NCBI RefSeq assembly: GCF_017979475.1
Contig: NZ_JAERIT010000002.1
Span: 1 to 64,000 of the forward strand
Length of the DNA: 64,000 nucleotides
DNA from: Helicobacter pullorum NCTC 12824
GTDB taxonomy: Bacteria > Campylobacterota > Campylobacteria > Campylobacterales > Helicobacteraceae
Direction: 5' to 3'
Part shown: positions 1 to 8,733 of the stretch, in pieces
Position numbering within the stretch: the first letter of the stretch is position 1
How the letters are laid out: every line of letters starts with the position of its first letter
Position numbers and translations under genes: made by a program
The notes under the pieces: generated by a model
What the model was told of the DNA's origin: nothing
The model's database searches: none
The model's input: the letters and a program-made list of their open reading frames with translations, nothing else

Positions 1-3000
1 GCCATACAAGGATTATTTGTCTTAGCATTATCACTTACAATACATAATCTACCTCTTTCTTTACCATCTTCTACAATGTCTTCTTGTTTTTCTTGTGCTG
101 GGAGGATTAGTATTGCTTCTTTAGAGGCTAAGTCTGCTATTTTTTGCACTTCACTTGGTGGAGTAAAACGATTATTGTTATCTCCATTGCCTTGTGTATC
201 TTCAAAGTTATCTAAACTGCCTATGTTGATTGTAAAATTTAGAGGACTTAGAGATTCTTTAGCAAAGATTGTATAGTTAGTATCTGTCTTAAAAGAATCC
301 TTGATTAATCCTTGAAAAGATTCTAAATTTATCTTAGCTATTTGCTCTAAGTTTAAAAGTTCATTGTATTGTTCTTCTAATAGTTTTTTTAGGCTTTCTT
401 GCTCTAAAGGTGGTAAGCCTCCACTTTGATAAAGCTCTTTGTTTTGATTATAGGTATTGAGTTTATCTCTATAATCTTTTAAGAAGGCTAAATTGATATC
501 CTTGTTTTGTTTTAATGCTTCTATGAAATTAGAGAATTTAAGATTAATTGTTAAGTCTTGGTTTAATGCTCCATAGATATTATCATTAACTTTATAATAA
601 TCTCCAAATAATTCTTTAATATCATTTTCTCCATCTAAGAAAGAAACTAAGAAGTCTAAAGATTGTCTAATAGATTCTAAATCTTGTGTGAGTAAATCAA
701 AGATAAGATTACTATTGCCTTGATTGTCTTTACCTAAGATAGAATCTAAGATGGATTGGTTGAAGTCGTCTTTAGTAGGATTGTAGGTGAAGTAAGAATC
801 AAGATTTGATAGATCAATGGTAGGGAAGGTTACAGCAGAGTTGTTTATGCTTGGGGAAGTGATAGTTGGTATGTAATTCTCTTCAATATTAGCAAGAATC
901 TCATCAAAATAATAAATTTTTAGCCCACTATCATTTTTTATATCCCATTTCTCATTTGCTATTGTTGTTTGAATGGCATCATAATCATTCATTTCTTGTT
1001 CTTTCCCATTATAAATAACAACAAATTTATCTTTTGGAGTATTATCATAGGCTTGATAGTCTGTATATTTTACATTATTGACTATCCCATTTTCTATTAT
1101 ACTACTTGAATTACCCTCACCAATAAATACATCATGAAAAGTGCCTTGATAACTTTTTGTAGTTAATAAGTTATCAACATTATTGATACTAACCTTATTT
1201 GCAGATATTTTATCATCTTCATCTACATAGCCTACTAGAGCACCGGCTATCTCACCAACTATACTACCAATATTATTTACCAATATATTTTCTATAATTT
1301 CACCTTCACCCCCTTTACCTAAAACTCCAGCAGAACTAGCCATATTGCTTACACTTTGTGCACCAGCTTTGATATTCTCTATATCAGAAATATATACATT
1401 TTTTATGGTAACACCTCCACTTGAATAACCCATAACACCGCCAGCATTAGCCCTCTGTGATTCAATCGTACCAATATCCTCCATAATAGCATTTTGGATT
1501 GTTCCTCCTTGACTACTTCCAACTACTCCACCTACACTACCATAGGACTCTATTTTGCCAATATCTTGTATTCTAATATCTTCAATCTCTCCTTGATTAT
1601 CTTTTCCTATTAATCCTCCAGCTCCTCCAGTCATACCGGTATCAATTGTTCCAATATTACTAATCTTCACTTTATGCACACTATTGGATTCACTATAACC
1701 AATTCCACCACCTACATAGGAATTTTTCTCAGAAGAACTTACAATAGACTGCATTCCATTCACAGCGACTTCTTTAATGGTATTTTGATATCCATAACCA
1801 ATAATCCCACCTATATGGATTTCATGATCCGTATTGCTTGCTTTGTTTGTTATCACTCCACTAATTGTTCCATTGTTTGTTGCATTATTGATAAAGACAT
1901 TTTGCAATTCCGCATTTCTAGCACCACCAATAAACCCGCCTAAATACACAAAAATCCCACCAGAACCAGCTGCATTTCTATCTGTAATTGCTTCAGCTTT
2001 TAAGGTTCCTATATCAGAGAGACTTACATTTGAAATATTTGCATTTTTATTATATCCGACAAATCCACCTACATATAGTTGTGGCAAACCCCCAGTAATT
2101 TTTGCATCAATACTCACATTCTCAACATTAATACGATTCACAGAATCAAATCCAGTGCTTGTAGAAGTCAGCCAACCAACAACGCCACCTACCATAGACT
2201 GATTACTACCATCTTGAAAACTAATATTTACATCTTTTATGCCAATATCATAAATTTTAGTATCTTGTGCATAACTAATAAGAGATCCCACACCATAAAC
2301 AAAACCATTAGTATTATATGCAATCTCTACATTATCTATTTGTAAATTATGAATTTCAGATTGCTTTACATTCCCAAATATTCCAATAAAATTATTTTTA
2401 TTAGAACTTCCTTTATCAATCTTTATATCCACATTCTTCAATGTATGTCCATTTCCATTAAAGTTTGTAGTAAAAGCATTATTACTATCTCTCCCCACAA
2501 TCATCGAATCATCATAATTACCATCTCCATTTGGATCAGCATAATTCCCACTAAAGTTTAATTGAGTTCCATCAATAAGTGAAATTTTCTCATTTTTACC
2601 AAAGTCAATATCGCTTAACAATACAAAATCATCAATCAAATCTCTTATTTGATTTTTCCCTTCATTCCAACCTTTTGCAAAATAATACCAATCCCTTAAA
2701 GACTCTGCATTATTGCCTTTTTCTTTTCCAATCGTTGCAATACCTTTAAAGTCCTTTATGGAAATAGCACTAGTAATTCCATTATAATTTTGTGTTTCAA
2801 TGTTAAAATTCTCATACCCATAAAGATTTGTTGTAGAGATTTGAATACTAGCTTTATCTTCAATACTTGTGATAACCTTTCCTTTAATGTATTGAGCCCT
2901 CATATCAAGTTCATTGCCAATTAAGGTTATAGAATTATTTTGGGTATCTCCATTTTGATTGATGAGTTTTGCACTCTCTGCAAATACCACTTCATTCCCA

Positions 3001-3721
3001 ATCAATGTGATTCCATTATTGGCTTTAATTGTTCCTAGATTAACAATATTCCCCTTATTAGGTTTAAACACTGGAGAGAAAGTAGTAATAGCATTAATAT
3101 CATTGACTTTGTTTTTAAAACTATTAAGTGTTGTATCATCAATAATATTACTTGCTACAAATTTATTTGCATTAATACTTGCATTTTGTCCTATTAATAC
3201 TCCACTTGGATTAACTAAATAGATATTATTGCCATTGCCATTAAGATTACCTAGTATTTGTGAAGCTTTATTAGTATAATCAAGGTTTAAAAAAGAAGCT
3301 TGCCGTCCATGACTTGTATTAAAATTCACTTCTGCATCTTTACCGATATTAAATCCACCACCCCACGCAATCACATGGTTTGTGTTCTTGCCTGTGATAT
3401 TCATTGTATTGCCATCTTTGATGATAATATTTCCACTTCCATGGATAAATTTACCTCCAGCAGGTAAAGCATTCTTTGGAATATCAGCAGCAACTAAGTT
3501 TTGAGACAACAACACACTAGCAATAATAGAAATACCAATTTTGCTAATGGTTTTGGATTGAATCTTAGAATCTTTTTGTAAAGATTGCAGTTTGGATTTT
3601 TTGGAATCTTGAATCTTTTTAGGATTTGAGTTTTTAAGAGTATTGAGAGTATTTAAAGAGTTAATTAAAGGCTTATTTGCCCCCCCCCCCATACTACGAC
3701 AGAATTAGGATTGTTTGACAT
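1..3721 (-). CDS. Two-partner-secretion exoprotein (filamentous hemagglutinin/TpsA type), 5' part, frame broken at a poly-G tract
   Basis: This is a very large secreted surface protein that continues past the left edge. It begins ATG TCA AAC at 3721 behind an AAAGGAG ribosome site. A long basic N-terminus and a hydrophobic core near residues 65-80 form an extended signal peptide. A TPS (hemagglutination activity) domain follows, with the hallmark NPSGVLIGQNA; this is the domain that addresses TpsA proteins to an outer-membrane TpsB pore. Residues about 470-830 carry repeated G-G-x-[IVL]-G-[YWG] motifs of GLUG type. With 11 Gs the start reads only 18 codons to a TAA at 3665-3667; 12 or 9 Gs would join it to the open frame, which I checked at the left edge, near 1930 and in the N-terminus. 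No in-frame downstream start keeps the signal peptide. A TpsB partner is not in the window. The family call is firm; ligand and role are unknown. Confidence 0.85.
3680..3690. repeat. Homopolymeric tract C11 (G11 in the gene), phase-variation switch
   Basis: Eleven consecutive C residues on the plus strand lie inside codons 11-14 of the exoprotein gene. It is the only long G/C homopolymer in an AT-rich window. Such tracts change length by slipped-strand mispairing in Helicobacter and Campylobacter. The count here leaves the frame off by one base, so the consensus read is the OFF phase unless the tract was miscounted in sequencing. Confidence 0.85.
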
Positions 3722-3743
3722 TTTATCTCCTTTATAAGATATT

Positions 3744-3784
3744 TAAATTTATAAACAAAAAAACCTCTTATATTTATAAATTTA
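3744..3784 (-). repeat. 12-bp perfect inverted repeat in the exoprotein 5' leader
   Basis: TAAATTTATAAA at 3744-3755 and its exact reverse complement at 3773-3784 are separated by 17 bases. The distal arm starts one base inside the predicted transcription start, so the mRNA would begin with this AU-only hairpin, ahead of the ribosome site. It could protect the transcript end or bind a protein. Because it is pure A/T it could also be coincidental. Confidence 0.5.
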
Positions 3785-3791
3785 CAAAGAT

Positions 3792-3797
3792 ATTATA
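3792..3797 (-). promoter_or_regulatory. Predicted -10 element of the exoprotein gene
   Basis: A perfect TATAAT on the minus strand places transcription start near 3785 and gives a leader of about 64 bases. It lies after the trmA stop, so the exoprotein probably has its own promoter rather than reading through from the mot-fli-trmA operon. Confidence 0.5.
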
Positions 3798-3833
3798 CTA
3801 CTAAATTGAGATAAAATTGATAAAATAAAAATA

Positions 3834-4943
3834 TTAATTTGATTTGTGCAACAAAACTCCACTTTCTAAATGTGGAGTGTGTGGAAACTGGTCAAAAAAT
3901 GCCACTTTGGAAATTTTGTGCGTTTGCTTGAGAATCTCCAAATCTTTTGCCAAAGTGCTTGGATTGCAAGAAATATAAAGAATATTTTGGAATCTTTGCA
4001 AAAATCTACTCACTTCCTCACCCAACCCCGCTCTTGGAGGATCCACAAAAACTGATGAGAAATAATAATCTTGCAATCTAATTCCCTCCAATCGCCGAAA
4101 TTCACGCACACCCTCTAATGCCTCTATGCACTCTTGAGCATTTAAACGAACGAATTTGATATTGTTTCTTTGGTTTTTTTCACACGCAAATTGAGCAGCC
4201 CTAATAGAGGTTTTGGAAATCTCTGTGGCAAGGACTTTGCGGAATTTTTCTGAAAAAGGTATCGTGAAATTCCCACAACCACAATACATTTCTAGCAAAT
4301 CCTCATCACTTCTCTTAAGGCTATCCATAGCCCATTTTAGCATTTTTTCATTGACTTTTGGATTGGGTTGGCTAAAGGCTCCTTCATCATAGCGATAAAA
4401 ATAGCCTTTTTTGCCCACCTTCAATTCTTCAATCACAAAATCCTTATCCACCGCAATTTTTACTCCACGACTACGCCCAACCACTTCAAGTTTTATCCCT
4501 CGTTTTTCCAAAACTTCCTTAAAAACTCTTGCTATCTCTAGCCATTTATCATTAAGCTTCTTATGATAAATAAGTGTCAGCAAAATAGTATCCACTTGCG
4601 TGCTTAACGCTTCTATGGCAAAAAGCTTCTCCCTAAAATCTCCAAAAAAATCATCATTTAGCACTTCTTTTAAAACTTGCAAAAATGCCTGTAAATTATC
4701 CACCAAAATAGGACAATTTTGGATAGGGACAAACTGCCTGCCTTTACGCATTGTATAAATGATTTTATTCTCTTTGTGATAAATACCAAGCTCACATCTT
4801 GCCCTAAAAGATACTTCTTGACTTCCAAAAACCTCAAAATTCTTAACCCCAAGCATAGCACTTGCACGAGCAATTTTGGACTCTAAAAAATATTCTTCTA
4901 AAGCACTGCAACCACCACAAATATCGATATTTTCACAATTCAC
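3834..4943 (-). CDS. trmA: tRNA (uracil-5-)-methyltransferase TrmA, with an RlmD-like cysteine set
   Basis: TrmA makes m5U54 in the T-loop of tRNA using S-adenosylmethionine. The 369-residue protein aligns with TrmA throughout: an IYHKKLND segment, a GAFSQPN segment, the SAM loop LEMYCGCGNFTIPF near residue 215, ATEISKTS, VDPPRAGL near 300 and the catalytic-Cys motif SCNPSTLAKDL near 325, ending FDQFPHTPHLESGVLL. Unusually, the N-terminus carries Cys3-x5-Cys9-x2-Cys12 plus Cys77 in QNCPIL, the pattern that holds a 4Fe-4S cluster in the rRNA enzyme RlmD (RumA) and is absent from E. coli TrmA. The start is GTG, overlapping the fliP stop by one base (TAGTG). It is the last gene of the motA-motB-fliP-trmA run. 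Confidence 0.88.
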   Translation of the reverse strand: MNCENIDICGGCSALEEYFLESKIARASAMLGVKNFEVFGSQEVSFRARCELGIYHKENKIIYTMRKGRQFVPIQNCPILVDNLQAFLQVLKEVLNDDFFGDFREKLFAIEALSTQVDTILLTLIYHKKLNDKWLEIARVFKEVLEKRGIKLEVVGRSRGVKIAVDKDFVIEELKVGKKGYFYRYDEGAFSQPNPKVNEKMLKWAMDSLKRSDEDLLEMYCGCGNFTIPFSEKFRKVLATEISKTSIRAAQFACEKNQRNNIKFVRLNAQECIEALEGVREFRRLEGIRLQDYYFSSVFVDPPRAGLGEEVSRFLQRFQNILYISCNPSTLAKDLEILKQTHKISKVAFFDQFPHTPHLESGVLLHKSN

Positions 4944-5698
4944 TAACGAAAACTCTCTACTAGATTCATTGTCAAAAGATTGAATCCATCAACCAAAATA
5001 AAAATTAAGATTTTAAAGGGCAATGAAATCATCGTAGGTGGCAACATCATCATACCCATTGCCATCAAAATAGAGCTAATCACCATATCAATTACCAAAA
5101 ATGGCAAATAAAGTAAAAATCCTATTTGAAAGGCGGTTTTCATTTCACTAATGATGAATGCAGGCAATGCGATAGTAAAAGGCACTTCTTGTGCATTTTG
5201 CGGATTCTCCATTCCTCTAATGCGATAAAACAATGCCAAATCTTTTGGTCTTGTATTTCGAATCATAAAATCTTTAAAAGGCTGTGAAGCACGCACAAAC
5301 GCTTCTTGATAGGAAATTTCCTTCGCTACATAAGGCTTAACCCCTTTTTCATAACCCTCTTTGACTACTGGCTCCATTATAAACATTGTCAAAATCAAAG
5401 CAAAAGATACCAAAAGTTGCGTTGGGGGAGATTGTTGAGTCCCCATTGCAGTCCGCAAAAATGAAAAAACAATCAAAATTCGCGCAAAACTAGTCGCCAT
5501 CAAAACAAGAGAAGGGGCTAATACAAGCAATGTCAAAACAATGACAATATTCAAAATAGCTACCAAATCTCCCGGTTCATTTGGTGCGCTAAGTGTCAAA
5601 TCAATGGTTGGTATAGTCGGACTTTGAGGCAACTCGGGAGGAGCTGCAAAAATAACCAAAGGCAAAAAAACTACAATCAATAAAAAACGCGATAACAC
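4943..5698 (-). CDS. fliP: Flagellar type III export protein FliP
   Basis: FliP forms, with FliQ and FliR, the export gate at the core of the flagellar secretion system in the inner membrane. The 251-residue protein starts with a cleavable signal sequence (MLSRFLLIVVFLPLVIFAA), then four membrane segments. Family signatures are visible: SFARILIVFSFLRTAMGTQQ-P near residues 70-95, a periplasmic/cytoplasmic loop with the F-DFMIRNTR segment, and a C-terminal GMMMLPPTMISLPFKILIFIL stretch. The length is normal. The gene begins 8 bases after motB, and its stop overlaps the trmA start. In H. pylori fliP also sits near glmU, which supports the lineage assignment. Confidence 0.95.
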   Translation of the reverse strand: MLSRFLLIVVFLPLVIFAAPPELPQSPTIPTIDLTLSAPNEPGDLVAILNIVIVLTLLVLAPSLVLMATSFARILIVFSFLRTAMGTQQSPPTQLLVSFALILTMFIMEPVVKEGYEKGVKPYVAKEISYQEAFVRASQPFKDFMIRNTRPKDLALFYRIRGMENPQNAQEVPFTIALPAFIISEMKTAFQIGFLLYLPFLVIDMVISSILMAMGMMMLPPTMISLPFKILIFILVDGFNLLTMNLVESFR

Positions 5699-5706
5699 TT
5701 AAATCC

Positions 5707-6531
5707 TTATTGTTCTATATTTTGAGAAATTGAAGAATTGCTTTTTTGCTCATAATTTTTCTGCTCGATTGTCTTATCCAAAATATTTTGGACTTTATGC
5801 AAATACCTATCATTTGGATAAAATCTAAATTCTACACGCCGATTCTGTGCTTTATTCTCTTCAGTTGTATTAGGAAGCACAAAGTTTGTCGCACCATTAC
5901 CCAAAGAAGTTATTTTTTGTGGATTTACTCCATTTTCAATTAAAACCCTTGCAACGCCTAATGCACGCATAGCACTTAAGCCCAAATTATCTTGATATTT
6001 TTGGGTAGGAATGATTTGTGAATCATCGGTATAGCCGATAACATCTAAATGAATGTTTGCTGGCATTTTTTGTAAAATCAAAGCCATTCTTTTTAGGAAT
6101 AATTTTTCTTCTGCATTTTTTAATGTTGTTTCATTTTTGTCAAAAAGCAATTTACCATTAAAACGCAAAATAAAACCCTTGCTCCCCTCATCAATAATAG
6201 TAGAAGGACCCAAAGAAACGCGGGTATTTTCTTTGAAATCCATAATTTCACTTTCAATCTTTTTGACTTCATTTGTTGTTTCAGGATCGGTTGTAATATC
6301 TGCTTGTTGCTGGATTCGATTATTGCTTTTTTCTATTTTGATTCCGCCTGTTAATAAACTCAAACTCCCTCTTATGCTTCCCTCTGCTTCTACAAGCTTT
6401 TTAGAATCAAAAGTAACCATTGAAAGCAATAAAATAAAAAAAGTAAGAATAAGCGTAACCATATCCCCATAAGTCCCAAGCCACAATGGGACAACTTGCG
6501 GACAATCACAGGGAGGACATCTCTTTGCCAT
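5707..6531 (-). CDS. motB: Flagellar stator protein MotB (OmpA domain)
   Basis: MotB anchors the stator to peptidoglycan and supplies the ion-binding Asp. The 274-residue protein has a short Cys-rich cytoplasmic N-terminus (CPPCDCP), one membrane helix starting at YGDMVTLILTFF whose Asp23 is the expected ion-binding residue, a linker, and a C-terminal OmpA-like domain (about 115-240) with IGYTDDSQ and NRRVEFRF. The N-terminal region differs from the PADFLSLLLALF type I associate with H. pylori and C. jejuni, and matches a second family of stators. It lies 17 bases after motA. Confidence 0.9.
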   Translation of the reverse strand: MAKRCPPCDCPQVVPLWLGTYGDMVTLILTFFILLLSMVTFDSKKLVEAEGSIRGSLSLLTGGIKIEKSNNRIQQQADITTDPETTNEVKKIESEIMDFKENTRVSLGPSTIIDEGSKGFILRFNGKLLFDKNETTLKNAEEKLFLKRMALILQKMPANIHLDVIGYTDDSQIIPTQKYQDNLGLSAMRALGVARVLIENGVNPQKITSLGNGATNFVLPNTTEENKAQNRRVEFRFYPNDRYLHKVQNILDKTIEQKNYEQKSNSSISQNIEQ

Positions 6532-6548
6532 TCTTCTTAATCCAAGTT

Positions 6549-7313
6549 TTATTCAAATTGACTCACACGCTGACTAGGCGGTAAAAATGTCAATAATTTT
6601 GCTTCCAAAGCACGCGGATTATCCCCTGCTTGAATGGACATAATCCCTTCAATAATCATAAGTTTGACTAATGCCTCATCATTTGCACGCACATTTAAAA
6701 TATTAGCAATAGGAGAACCTACAACATTTCCGATAAAAGAACCATACAATGTAGTAATCAAAGCAACCGCCATCGCAGGACCAATAGAGCCGGGATCGGA
6801 CATATTTAAAAGCATTGCAACAAGACCAATCAAAGTCCCCAACATCCCATATGCACCAGCATAAGCAGCCCAAGTATCAAAAATACTTGCATTAGATTTA
6901 TGTCGCTCCAATGTCCTATCCATATCTGTTTCAAGCAAATCTCTAATGCTATCAGGCTCTGCTCCATCAATTGCCATATTCAAGCCTCGTTTTAGAAACT
7001 CATTCTCTTCTTGATTAGATTGCTGCTCCAAAGATAAAATGCCATCGCGTCGTGCTTGTGTAGAATAATCAACAAGCTTTTTAATCAATGCAGGCACATC
7101 AAAAGTTTGAGGTTTGAATGCAATCGCAAAATATGTAAAAAATTTTTTCATATTTTCAAGTTTAAAAGCAATCAGCAAACTTGTAATAGAACCCCCAATT
7201 GTAATCATAACAGATGGAATGTCAATATAAGGACCAATCCCAACCCCAAGCATCATAGCAGAACCAATAAGTATAAATGAAAGACTCATACCAATGACAG
7301 TTCCTAAATCCAT
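6549..7313 (-). CDS. motA: Flagellar stator protein MotA (PomA-like branch)
   Basis: MotA forms the five-subunit ring around MotB that drives the flagellar rotor by ion flow. The 254-residue protein has four membrane segments and the cytoplasmic loop with E-RHKSN. I chose ATG at 7313 because AAGGA lies at the right distance and family members start MDL; a TTG at 7346 would add 11 residues without a ribosome site. GMLGTLIGLVAMLLNMSDP and GPAMAVALITTLYGS resemble Vibrio PomA far more than H. pylori MotA. The proline normally found just before helix 3 (E. coli Pro173; PomA APAMGM) is Gly here (YAGAYGM, residue about 152), read directly as GGT. The ion, H+ or Na+, cannot be told from sequence. 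Confidence 0.9.
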   Translation of the reverse strand: MDLGTVIGMSLSFILIGSAMMLGVGIGPYIDIPSVMITIGGSITSLLIAFKLENMKKFFTYFAIAFKPQTFDVPALIKKLVDYSTQARRDGILSLEQQSNQEENEFLKRGLNMAIDGAEPDSIRDLLETDMDRTLERHKSNASIFDTWAAYAGAYGMLGTLIGLVAMLLNMSDPGSIGPAMAVALITTLYGSFIGNVVGSPIANILNVRANDEALVKLMIIEGIMSIQAGDNPRALEAKLLTFLPPSQRVSQFE

Positions 7314-7387
7314 CGTCTCTCGTCCTTTAGAAAAAATATCATTCAAAACTTTATTTTAAAAATTTATTATTCTAAACTTTATTGTGT

Positions 7388-7393
7388 TAAAAT
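7388..7393 (+). promoter_or_regulatory. Possible -10 element for glmU
   Basis: TAAAAT lies 24 bases before the glmU start in the 103-base gap between divergent motA and glmU. It is a weak match and no clear -35 is seen, as usual in this group. Confidence 0.3.
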
Positions 7394-7416
7394 CTCATTA
7401 AAATTTTTACAATATT

Positions 7417-8733
7417 ATGGATATTTTTATGGAAAACAAACTTTCAATCGTTATTTTAGCTGCCGGAAAAGGCACTCGTATGCAATCTCAAACGCCAAAG
7501 GTTTTGCACCAAATTTGTGGCAAAGAAATGCTTTATTATAGTATCAAAGAATCTTTGAAACTAAGCGATGATGTGAGTGTGGTATTAGGATACAAAGCTC
7601 AAGAGATTCAAGAGGCAATGGAACAATACTTCCCTAATACATTGCATTTTATTTTGCAAGATTTAGAAAATTACCCTGGCACAGGCGGTGCATTAAAAAA
7701 TTATCGCCCTAAATACAAAAAGGTTTTAGTTTTAAATGGAGATATGCCACTTATTCAAGCAGATGAATTAAAACATTTTCTTTCTTTGGATTCTGATATT
7801 ATTATGAGTATTTTAGATTTGCCCAACACCAAAGGCTATGGTCGTGTTAAAATTCAAAATAACGAAGTTTTAGAAATTATCGAAGAAAAAGACGCCTCGC
7901 CAGAGATTCTTTCTTTGAGCACGCTTAATGCTGGGGTATATTGCTTTAGAAGCGAAATTTTGGAAACTTACCTCCCAAAGCTCCAAAATCATAATGCCCA
8001 AAAAGAATACTATCTCACTGATATTATTGCATTAAGCAAAAAAGATTCAAAAAGTATCACACCACTATTTGTAGAGTTAGAAAATTTTAAGGGTGTTAAT
8101 GACAAAGCAGATTTGGCACATGCAGAAGAAATCATGGGTATGCGAATCAAAAAAGCTCTTATGCAACAAGGCGTAATAATGCACCTCCCACAAACTATTT
8201 ATATCCAAGAGGGTGCAAAGTTTGTCGGAGAATGTATCTTGGAAAATGGGGTTAGCATTTATGGCGATTGTGAAATTATCAATTCCCATATCAAAGCCCA
8301 TAGTGTCATTGAATCAAGCTATATTGAAAATAGCGATGTTGGTCCTTTGGCACATTTACGCCCAAAAAGCATACTCAAAAATACACACATTGGTAATTTT
8401 GTCGAAGTCAAAAAATCCACACTCAATGGAGTAAAAGCGGGGCATTTAAGCTATCTTGGAGATTGTGAGATTGATGAAGGAACTAATGTTGGTGCTGGTT
8501 TTATTACCTGCAATTACAATGGCAAAGAAAAATTTCAAACCAAAATAGGCAAAAATGTCTTTATCGGCAGTGATTCACAAGCAGTGGCTCCTATTGTGAT
8601 TGAAGATGACTGCATTATAGGTGCAGGAAGCACAATAAGAGAGGATATCAAAAAAGGCTCTTTGTTTTTGACACAAGGCAAAAAAATTCACAAAGAGAAC
8701 TTTTTTTATAAATTTTTCAATAAAAAAGCATAA
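7417..8733 (+). CDS. glmU: Bifunctional UDP-GlcNAc pyrophosphorylase / glucosamine-1-phosphate N-acetyltransferase GlmU
   Basis: GlmU acetylates glucosamine-1-phosphate and then couples it to UTP, giving UDP-GlcNAc for peptidoglycan and LPS. Residues 1-230 form the uridylyltransferase, with the nucleotide loop LAAGKGTRM near 12-20 and PKVLH after it. Residues about 250-438 form the left-handed beta-helix of hexapeptide repeats, with GPLAHLRP, GNFVEVKKS, GAGFITCNYNG and IGSDSQAVAP. The 438-residue length is close to that of H. pylori GlmU. Two starts are possible, 7417 and 7429; neither has a strong ribosome site, and the second aligns better with homologues. It is transcribed divergently from motA. 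Confidence 0.95.
   Translation: MDIFMENKLSIVILAAGKGTRMQSQTPKVLHQICGKEMLYYSIKESLKLSDDVSVVLGYKAQEIQEAMEQYFPNTLHFILQDLENYPGTGGALKNYRPKYKKVLVLNGDMPLIQADELKHFLSLDSDIIMSILDLPNTKGYGRVKIQNNEVLEIIEEKDASPEILSLSTLNAGVYCFRSEILETYLPKLQNHNAQKEYYLTDIIALSKKDSKSITPLFVELENFKGVNDKADLAHAEEIMGMRIKKALMQQGVIMHLPQTIYIQEGAKFVGECILENGVSIYGDCEIINSHIKAHSVIESSYIENSDVGPLAHLRPKSILKNTHIGNFVEVKKSTLNGVKAGHLSYLGDCEIDEGTNVGAGFITCNYNGKEKFQTKIGKNVFIGSDSQAVAPIVIEDDCIIGAGSTIREDIKKGSLFLTQGKKIHKENFFYKFFNKKA

What the first reader, a model, noticed from the sequence alone, without database searches (positions are those of the whole stretch)
3680..3690. Phase-variable G11 tract switches off a TPS exoprotein
An 11-G tract at codons 11-14 puts ATG and signal peptide one base out of frame with a very long open frame. 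At 11 Gs translation ends after 18 codons (TAA at 3665-3667); at 12 or 9 it would continue. This is the layout of a contingency locus that varies a surface adhesin. The protein and its ligand appear undescribed.
Basis: partly seen in the sequence, partly recalled or inferred. Interest (0 to 1): 0.75.

Follow-up and report, generated by a model that had tools for sequence, protein, structure and literature searches.

The report
Poly-G switch on surface-protein gene
A run of eleven Gs just after the start of a large surface-protein gene in a Helicobacter-type bacterium very probably acts as a random on/off switch, one of several matching switches on related genes; the kind of switch is already known, so this is a tidy new example rather than a surprise.

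Summary
Eleven uninterrupted Gs (3680-3690, minus strand) separate the ATG that bears a Shine-Dalgarno from a signal peptide, a two-partner-secretion (TPS) domain and a frame open to the contig edge; translation from that ATG stops after 18 codons. Two corrections: the signal peptide lies after the tract, in the long frame; and an ATG overlapping the tract is in frame as assembled, without a Shine-Dalgarno, so "off" may mean "low". All four TPS genes detected in this genome carry a G tract 31 nt after the ATG (11, 12, 13, 13 Gs; one in frame), and three related genomes carry it at the same place. The genome has 38 G/C runs of 9 or more. The long frames look selected. A published H. canadensis survey lists an FHA-domain gene with a G14 tract, 11-16 in reads, very probably the ortholog. 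Verdict: a new member of a known kind. New here: a shared leader that supports the upstream start codon, four separately switchable TpsA genes with one detected TpsB, and a shared C-terminal cysteine pair reminiscent of HMW1/HxuA anchors. Within-strain length variation could not be tested.

The parts
3727..3732 (-). Shine-Dalgarno AAGGAG of the leader ATG
   Evidence: sequence; duplex with anti-SD -8.0 kcal/mol; same energy in the C6 and C16 paralogs, -4.6 in C11
3719..3721 (-). leader ATG, most likely start codon, 31 nt before the tract
   Evidence: same offset in the 4 TPS genes found in this genome and in G003, G004, G005
3680..3690 (-). 11-G tract (codons 11-14)
3665..3667 (-). TAA reached from the leader ATG at the assembled length
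3690..3692 (-). second ATG overlapping the tract; in frame with the long ORF at 11 Gs; no Shine-Dalgarno
3486..3539 (-). hydrophobic core of the signal peptide (IGISIIASVLLSQNLVAA), in the long frame
   Evidence: translation, by eye
2736..3431 (-). TPS secretion domain
   Evidence: PF05860 45.8 bits, cut-off 33.5; TIGR01901; EtpA 7.6e-15
3..3692 (-). long open frame of the TpsA exoprotein (1230 aa from the tract ATG), cut by the contig end
6..44 (-). C-terminal cysteine pair CIVSDNAKTNNPC (the only cysteines in the long frame after the tract), candidate surface anchor

Best explanation
This is a translationally phase-variable tpsA gene. The ribosome starts at the leader ATG, crosses the G tract and, depending on tract length, either enters the long frame (signal peptide, TPS domain, passenger, C-terminal Cys pair) or meets a stop within a few codons. 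Slipped-strand mispairing during replication adds or removes Gs, so the progeny of one cell differ. This copy is out of frame as assembled; one of its three paralogs (C6) is in frame. When made, the protein is exported by Sec, carried across the outer membrane by a TpsB pore and probably held at the surface by its C-terminal Cys loop. Shown: tract, frames, shared leader, domain, a TpsB gene, conserved C-terminus. Inferred: slippage within a strain, secretion, anchoring, any ligand.
For: Tract, ATG and frames read directly. All 4 TPS genes detected in the genome have the tract 31 nt after the ATG, lengths 11, 12, 13, 13; G003 (14), G004 (11) and G005 (11) have it at the same offset, G005 being in frame. 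The leader-plus-tract pattern (3 mismatches allowed) matched 8 places in 4 of 121 family genomes, with none for the reversed control pattern. Between tract and hydrophobic core the window gene has no other in-frame ATG, GTG or TTG. The long frame is kept: dN/dS 0.42-0.55 over the 6 segment pairs compared. 38 G/C runs of 9 or more genome-wide, 10-14 long. One ShlB-type TpsB at C11:41829-42569. Snyder et al. 2010 (PMC2823697): HCAN_0344, filamentous-haemagglutinin domain, G14, range 11-16 in reads, to be rated a strong candidate if a start 5' of the repeat is chosen.
Against: No reads, clones or further isolates of this species could be examined, so within-strain variation is not shown. The assembled count could be wrong; a contig edge 3.7 kb away lies in a repeat. 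At 11 Gs a second ATG opens the full frame, so this copy may not be silent. Domain calls are uneven: the Pfam scan of the whole window protein did not report the TPS domain, nor did that of the C11 ORF, and NCBIfam gave nothing for C6; piece-wise or six-frame searches do find it. The 14 control genomes of the PF05860 and ShlB searches gave no match, so they give no positive control. In G003 the Shine-Dalgarno before the leader ATG is weak (-2.6). Published read variation is from 454 data, whose homopolymer problems the authors acknowledge.
Confidence: 0.87

Rival explanations
1. Graded rather than on/off switch: the ATG overlapping the tract gives a low level of full protein at lengths such as the present 11, so the locus has strong, weak and off states.
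For: The tract ATG is in frame for 1230 aa at 11 Gs; an ATG overlaps the tract in the same way in all four TPS genes of the genome, whose lengths fall in all three frame classes.
Against: No Shine-Dalgarno (duplex energies +0.5 to +1.0 in the four genes); in G003-G005 the ATG near the tract is in the same frame as the leader ATG, so the arrangement is not conserved.
Confidence: 0.25
2. Assembly or sequencing error: the true count keeps the frame intact and nothing switches.
For: Homopolymers are error-prone; the C6 paralog is in frame with 12.
Against: Four paralogs and three other genomes differ in length around an uninterrupted tract at one position, and 38 tracts stand in this genome. Even with a wrong count the tract would remain a likely slippage site.
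Confidence: 0.06
3. Decayed pseudogene: the frame break is permanent.
For: A fifth leader copy at C20:154192 has no TPS gene behind it, so decay or partial duplication does occur in this family.
Against: Long frame free of stops for over 1200 codons; dN/dS 0.43-0.55 between two copies that are both out of frame as assembled (dS of the middle segment is 1.41, so that value is rough).
Confidence: 0.05
4. The switched protein is not an adhesin but an HxuA-like nutrient-binding exoprotein, or another TpsA class.
For: HxuA ranks first in the fold search and haemolysin A of Proteus follows further down (low-confidence model, no row below E 0.001); a review expects HxuA to share the HMW1-type disulfide anchor.
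Against: The two sequence matches among solved structures are both the adhesin EtpA; TIGR01901 is the filamentous-hemagglutinin N-terminal domain. Both lie in the secretion domain, which does not tell the function.
Confidence: 0.3

Closest known systems
HCAN_0344 of Helicobacter canadensis (Snyder et al. 2010, PMC2823697)
   Same: Filamentous-haemagglutinin-domain gene with a poly-G tract inside the gene; listed as a phase-variation candidate, G14 with reads 11-16. G003, probably this genome, carries one TPS gene, with 14 Gs at the same offset.
   Different: One TPS gene there, four here; the paper rated it 'putative' because the annotated start lay after the repeat; the window copy has 11 Gs and different first residues.
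fhaB of Bordetella pertussis (PMC7446907)
   Same: TPS exoprotein with a G tract (10, with 9 and 11 as variants), mixtures in all 49 isolates, FHA amount correlated with the in-frame fraction (r 0.49).
   Different: The tract lies about 1.08 kb into the gene, not in the leader before the signal peptide.
HMW1/HMW2 and HxuA of Haemophilus influenzae
   Same: TPS domain; a C-terminal disulfide loop that locks the protein in its TpsB pore (review PMC5422565); a Cys pair close to the C-terminus here.
   Different: HMW phase variation by promoter repeats (recalled) is transcriptional; an HMW1C-type gene was not found with one domain model, in a search whose controls rang nowhere either.
EtpA of enterotoxigenic E. 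coli
   Same: Closest solved sequence for the secretion domain (8cpk, 7.6e-15).
   Different: No poly-G switch known to me (recalled, not searched).

Membership tests
Two-partner secretion exoprotein (TpsA) | N-terminal TPS/NPXG secretion domain | tested here: met
   PF05860 45.8 bits over 33.5; TIGR01901 47.7 over 29.1; EtpA; not reported when the whole protein was scanned with Pfam
Two-partner secretion exoprotein (TpsA) | Sec signal peptide before the TPS domain | tested here: met
   by eye only: long basic N-region and hydrophobic core ending LVAA; no signal-peptide program was run
Two-partner secretion exoprotein (TpsA) | TpsB (ShlB/FhaC) in the genome | tested here: met
   one ShlB match, C11:41829-42569, in the same locus as the C11 paralog; that it serves the window copy is inferred
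Two-partner secretion exoprotein (TpsA) | secretion through TpsB | not testable with these tools
   needs an experiment
Simple-sequence contingency locus, translational | long uninterrupted repeat between start codon and most of the frame | tested here: met
Simple-sequence contingency locus, translational | repeat position conserved while its length varies between homologs | tested here: met
   7 genes in 4 genomes, lengths 11-14, offset 31 in all; pattern search
Simple-sequence contingency locus, translational | length variation within a strain | not testable with these tools
   no reads or isolates held; reported for the probable ortholog
Simple-sequence contingency locus, translational | protein switches with tract length | not testable with these tools
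   reported for fhaB elsewhere
HMW1/HxuA-type anchored TpsA | C-terminal Cys pair that locks the protein in TpsB | tested here: inconclusive
   Cys pair 11 residues apart in 4 of 4 C-termini found in the genome and in G003 and G004; bond and locking not tested
HMW1-type system | HMW1C-like glycosyltransferase | tested here: inconclusive
   PF18254 (number recalled) gave no match, but the control genomes gave none either
Adhesin | binds a host or bacterial surface ligand | not testable with these tools
   needs an experiment

The most novel reading that the evidence does not exclude
A combinatorial surface-protein repertoire: four tpsA genes with similar leaders and near-identical C-terminal anchors but divergent central regions, each with its own G tract, all feeding the single TpsB pore detected. 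Random slippage would set which passengers are displayed, competition for one pore would limit how many, and recombination between the conserved ends would supply new centres; the ATG at the tract would add a low-expression state.
Probability: 0.25. Interest if true: 0.5.

Novelty: new member of a known kind. Interest (0 to 1): 0.32.

Why it matters
Poly-G switching of a TPS exoprotein has experimental support in B. pertussis (fhaB) and read-level support in H. canadensis. This case shows the tract kept at one position in the leader of a TPS gene family across four genomes, which supports the upstream start codon that the H. canadensis study left open, and warns that automatic annotation starting at the tract would call such genes intact. 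It also offers a small, testable model of several switched passengers that may share one pore.

Tried and rejected
Naming the organism: not reached. One hit named G004 as Helicobacter sp. 11-8110 (contig of 52,887 bases, as G004:C1). G003 is taken as H. canadensis from its size (1,623,845 bases, one contig; I recall this as the size of that genome) and its single G14 TPS gene; no call proves it.

Relatives by protein in genome contigs: none confirmed. RNA families in the window: none at the gathering score. Promoter-like sites near the start: 5 against 2.6 expected; terminators: 0, not used. Structure: mean pLDDT 46 from a two-row alignment; Foldseek's first six rows are TPS proteins (HxuA, EtpA, HMW1), but none reaches E 0.001, so this is support of the weakest kind. 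A glycosyltransferase between tpsA and tpsB was suspected; the 861-aa ORF there has no Pfam or PDB match and is a LOFI-repeat protein by NCBIfam. Direct repeats in the gene: only short diverged pairs and one trio.

Papers: searches were seen as listings (titles, abstract starts). Apart from Snyder 2010, which alone holds the name HCAN_0344, no listed title pointed to this gene family; only open-licence PMC text is covered. Passages were read in PMC7446907, PMC5422565, PMC8151025 and PMC539331 (76, TPS loci in Campylobacter, several disrupted). One search (multiple start codons) listed 12 of 3,705, irrelevant by title apart from two or three on phase variation.

G or C runs of 9 or more within 300 nt before a TPS domain: 9 of 36 genes with enough upstream sequence (40 loci examined of the 51 matches; 4 of the 40 cut by contig ends and dropped). 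Seven are the leader family; the other two (G097, G100, another genus) are C runs, not followed up. So most TPS genes examined lack the tract; it belongs to one branch.

Full report
What is there. On the minus strand the sequence reads AAGGAG, five bases, ATG, nine more codons, a T and eleven Gs, and then a frame that stays open to the edge of the contig. The ATG (3719-3721) is out of that frame and meets TAA at 3665-3667 after 18 codons. The run is the only one of seven or more G/C in the window, and 0 of 100 shuffles held a run of eleven. The window starts at base 1 of contig C16, so the 3' end of the gene is cut; paralogs suggest that only a few residues are missing.

The signal peptide is not with the ATG but after the tract, some 46 codons into the long frame. 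An ATG overlapping the tract (3690-3692) is in frame at eleven Gs, which is why the mechanical ORF list shows an intact frame. It has no Shine-Dalgarno (+0.5 kcal/mol against -8.0 for the leader ATG), and between tract and signal-peptide core there is no other in-frame ATG, GTG or TTG in this gene.

What the gene is. Scanned as an N-terminal piece it matches the TPS secretion domain (PF05860, 45.8 bits, cut-off 33.5) and, as a whole, TIGR01901, the filamentous-hemagglutinin N-terminal domain. The whole-protein Pfam scan shows only a GLUG motif just above its cut-off and a chance-level row. Among the paralogs the Pfam scan found TPS in the C16 ORF but not in the C11 ORF, and NCBIfam found TIGR01901 in C11 and C16 but nothing in C6; the six-frame search with PF05860 puts all four over the cut-off, 44.6-52.8 bits, though its 14 control genomes gave no match. 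The two solved sequences matched are both EtpA (7.6e-15). A low-confidence model (pLDDT 46) finds HxuA, EtpA and HMW1 first, none below E 0.001. The genome shows one ShlB-type TpsB, in the locus of the C11 paralog with a LOFI-repeat protein in between; completeness is given as 93%, so a second cannot be excluded.

The tract is a family feature. The 4 TPS genes detected in the genome all have a G tract 31 nt after an ATG with a Shine-Dalgarno (-4.6 to -8.0): 11 (window), 12 (C6), 13 (C11) and 13 (C16, 163 kb) Gs; only C6 is in frame from that ATG. A fifth leader with 13 Gs at C20:154192 has no TPS gene behind it. Three other genomes of the genus have the tract at the same offset behind a related leader: G003 14, G004 (Helicobacter sp. 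11-8110) 11, G005 11; G005 is in frame. The Shine-Dalgarno is -8.0 in G004 and G005 but weak, -2.6, in G003. The leader pattern, with up to 3 mismatches, occurs at 8 places in 4 of 121 family genomes, and 0 times reversed. TPS genes elsewhere in the family (28 of 121 genomes) mostly lack such a tract: 9 of 36 examinable genes have a G/C run of nine or more within 300 nt before the domain, 7 of them this leader family.

Selection. Gly codons in 33 larger ORFs of the window are GGG in 202 of 899 cases, so a pure G run is not demanded by the coding need alone. The long frame is kept: dN/dS is 0.45, 0.55 and 0.43 in three segments of the window gene against its C16 paralog, though both are out of frame as assembled, and 0.42-0.48 for the three other pairs tested.

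Conserved ends, variable centre. Window and C16 paralog are 78% identical at aligned positions in the first 400 residues, 32% in the middle and 88% at the end; the last 146 bases at the contig edge are 98.6% identical to the C11 paralog, which may explain why the assembly broke there. RLCIVSDNAKTNNPCM occurs in 4 of 4 C-termini found in the genome (the fourth, at C16:250690, is not linked to a TPS domain in the assembly); G003 and G004 keep closely similar ends with both cysteines, and G005 and C6 run off their contigs. In the window protein these are the only cysteines after the tract. A review says that HMW1 carries, and HxuA is expected to carry, a C-terminal disulfide loop that locks it in its TpsB pore (PMC5422565, passages read), so a similar anchor is a fair inference, not a test.

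The genome. 38 G/C runs of nine or more, 10-14 long (one is cut by a contig end). Of 20 ORFs scanned, chosen from those that hold or adjoin tracts, 14 had a Pfam match: three GT8 glycosyltransferases, two methyltransferases, a sulfatase, an MBOAT acyltransferase, a GNAT acetyltransferase, a polysaccharide pyruvyl transferase, a cytidylyltransferase, a TupA-like ATP-grasp protein, two radical-SAM-type proteins and, beside a tract, polyphosphate kinase; 6 had none. Several are plausible surface-glycan enzymes, as in known contingency sets.

What is already in print. Snyder et al. 2010 (PMC2823697; abstract and the first two of four text parts read) list 29 tract-associated genes in H. canadensis, among them HCAN_0344, 'putative filamentous haemagglutinin domain protein', G14, 11-16 in 454 reads, rated putative because its annotated start lay after the repeat. 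The authors note that homopolymers can be problematic for 454 sequencing. G003 is very probably this genome. The conserved leader shown here supports the upstream start. In B. pertussis the fhaB G tract is mixed in all 49 isolates examined and FHA amount correlates with the in-frame fraction (PMC7446907, passages read). Hence the mechanism is known, and the probable ortholog is known as a candidate.

Mechanism and confidence. Slipped-strand mispairing at the tract shifts the frame and switches the exoprotein (0.87). Tract, frames, shared leader and domain are shown; slippage within a strain, secretion, anchoring and adhesion are inferred. Interest 0.32: a clear, well-supported new member of a known kind.

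Noticed in passing
G000:C20:154192-154235 (L077 10493-10536): Fifth copy of the leader with a 13-G tract but no TPS gene behind it; similarity to the C16 paralog (92% over 261 nt) ends about 30 nt after the tract.
   Followed up: partly
L063 5783-8368 (G000:C11): 861-aa LOFI-repeat protein (NF038205, 7 stretches) between a tpsA and the only tpsB detected.
   Followed up: partly
G000, 38 places: Large set of G/C tracts of 10-14, several in glycosyltransferase, methyltransferase, acyltransferase and sulfatase genes; some late in the frame (for example L087, L091), like the C-terminal variation described for H. canadensis.
   Followed up: partly
L094 (G005:C5): An ATG stands directly after the G tract and five extra bases follow the tract compared with G004; the gene is in frame from the leader ATG.
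   Followed up: no
L112 (G097), L113 (G100): TPS genes of another genus in the family with C runs (11; 10 and 10) upstream of the domain: possibly an independent switch.
   Followed up: no
L097 1-71 (G002:C2): Contig begins with 71 Cs about 0.8 kb before a TPS domain, probably an assembly artefact at a C tract.
   Followed up: no
window 1-146: Contig edge lies in a 3' end that is 98.6% identical to the C11 paralog and within a 792-nt 3' stretch 93.7% identical to the C16 paralog.
   Followed up: yes
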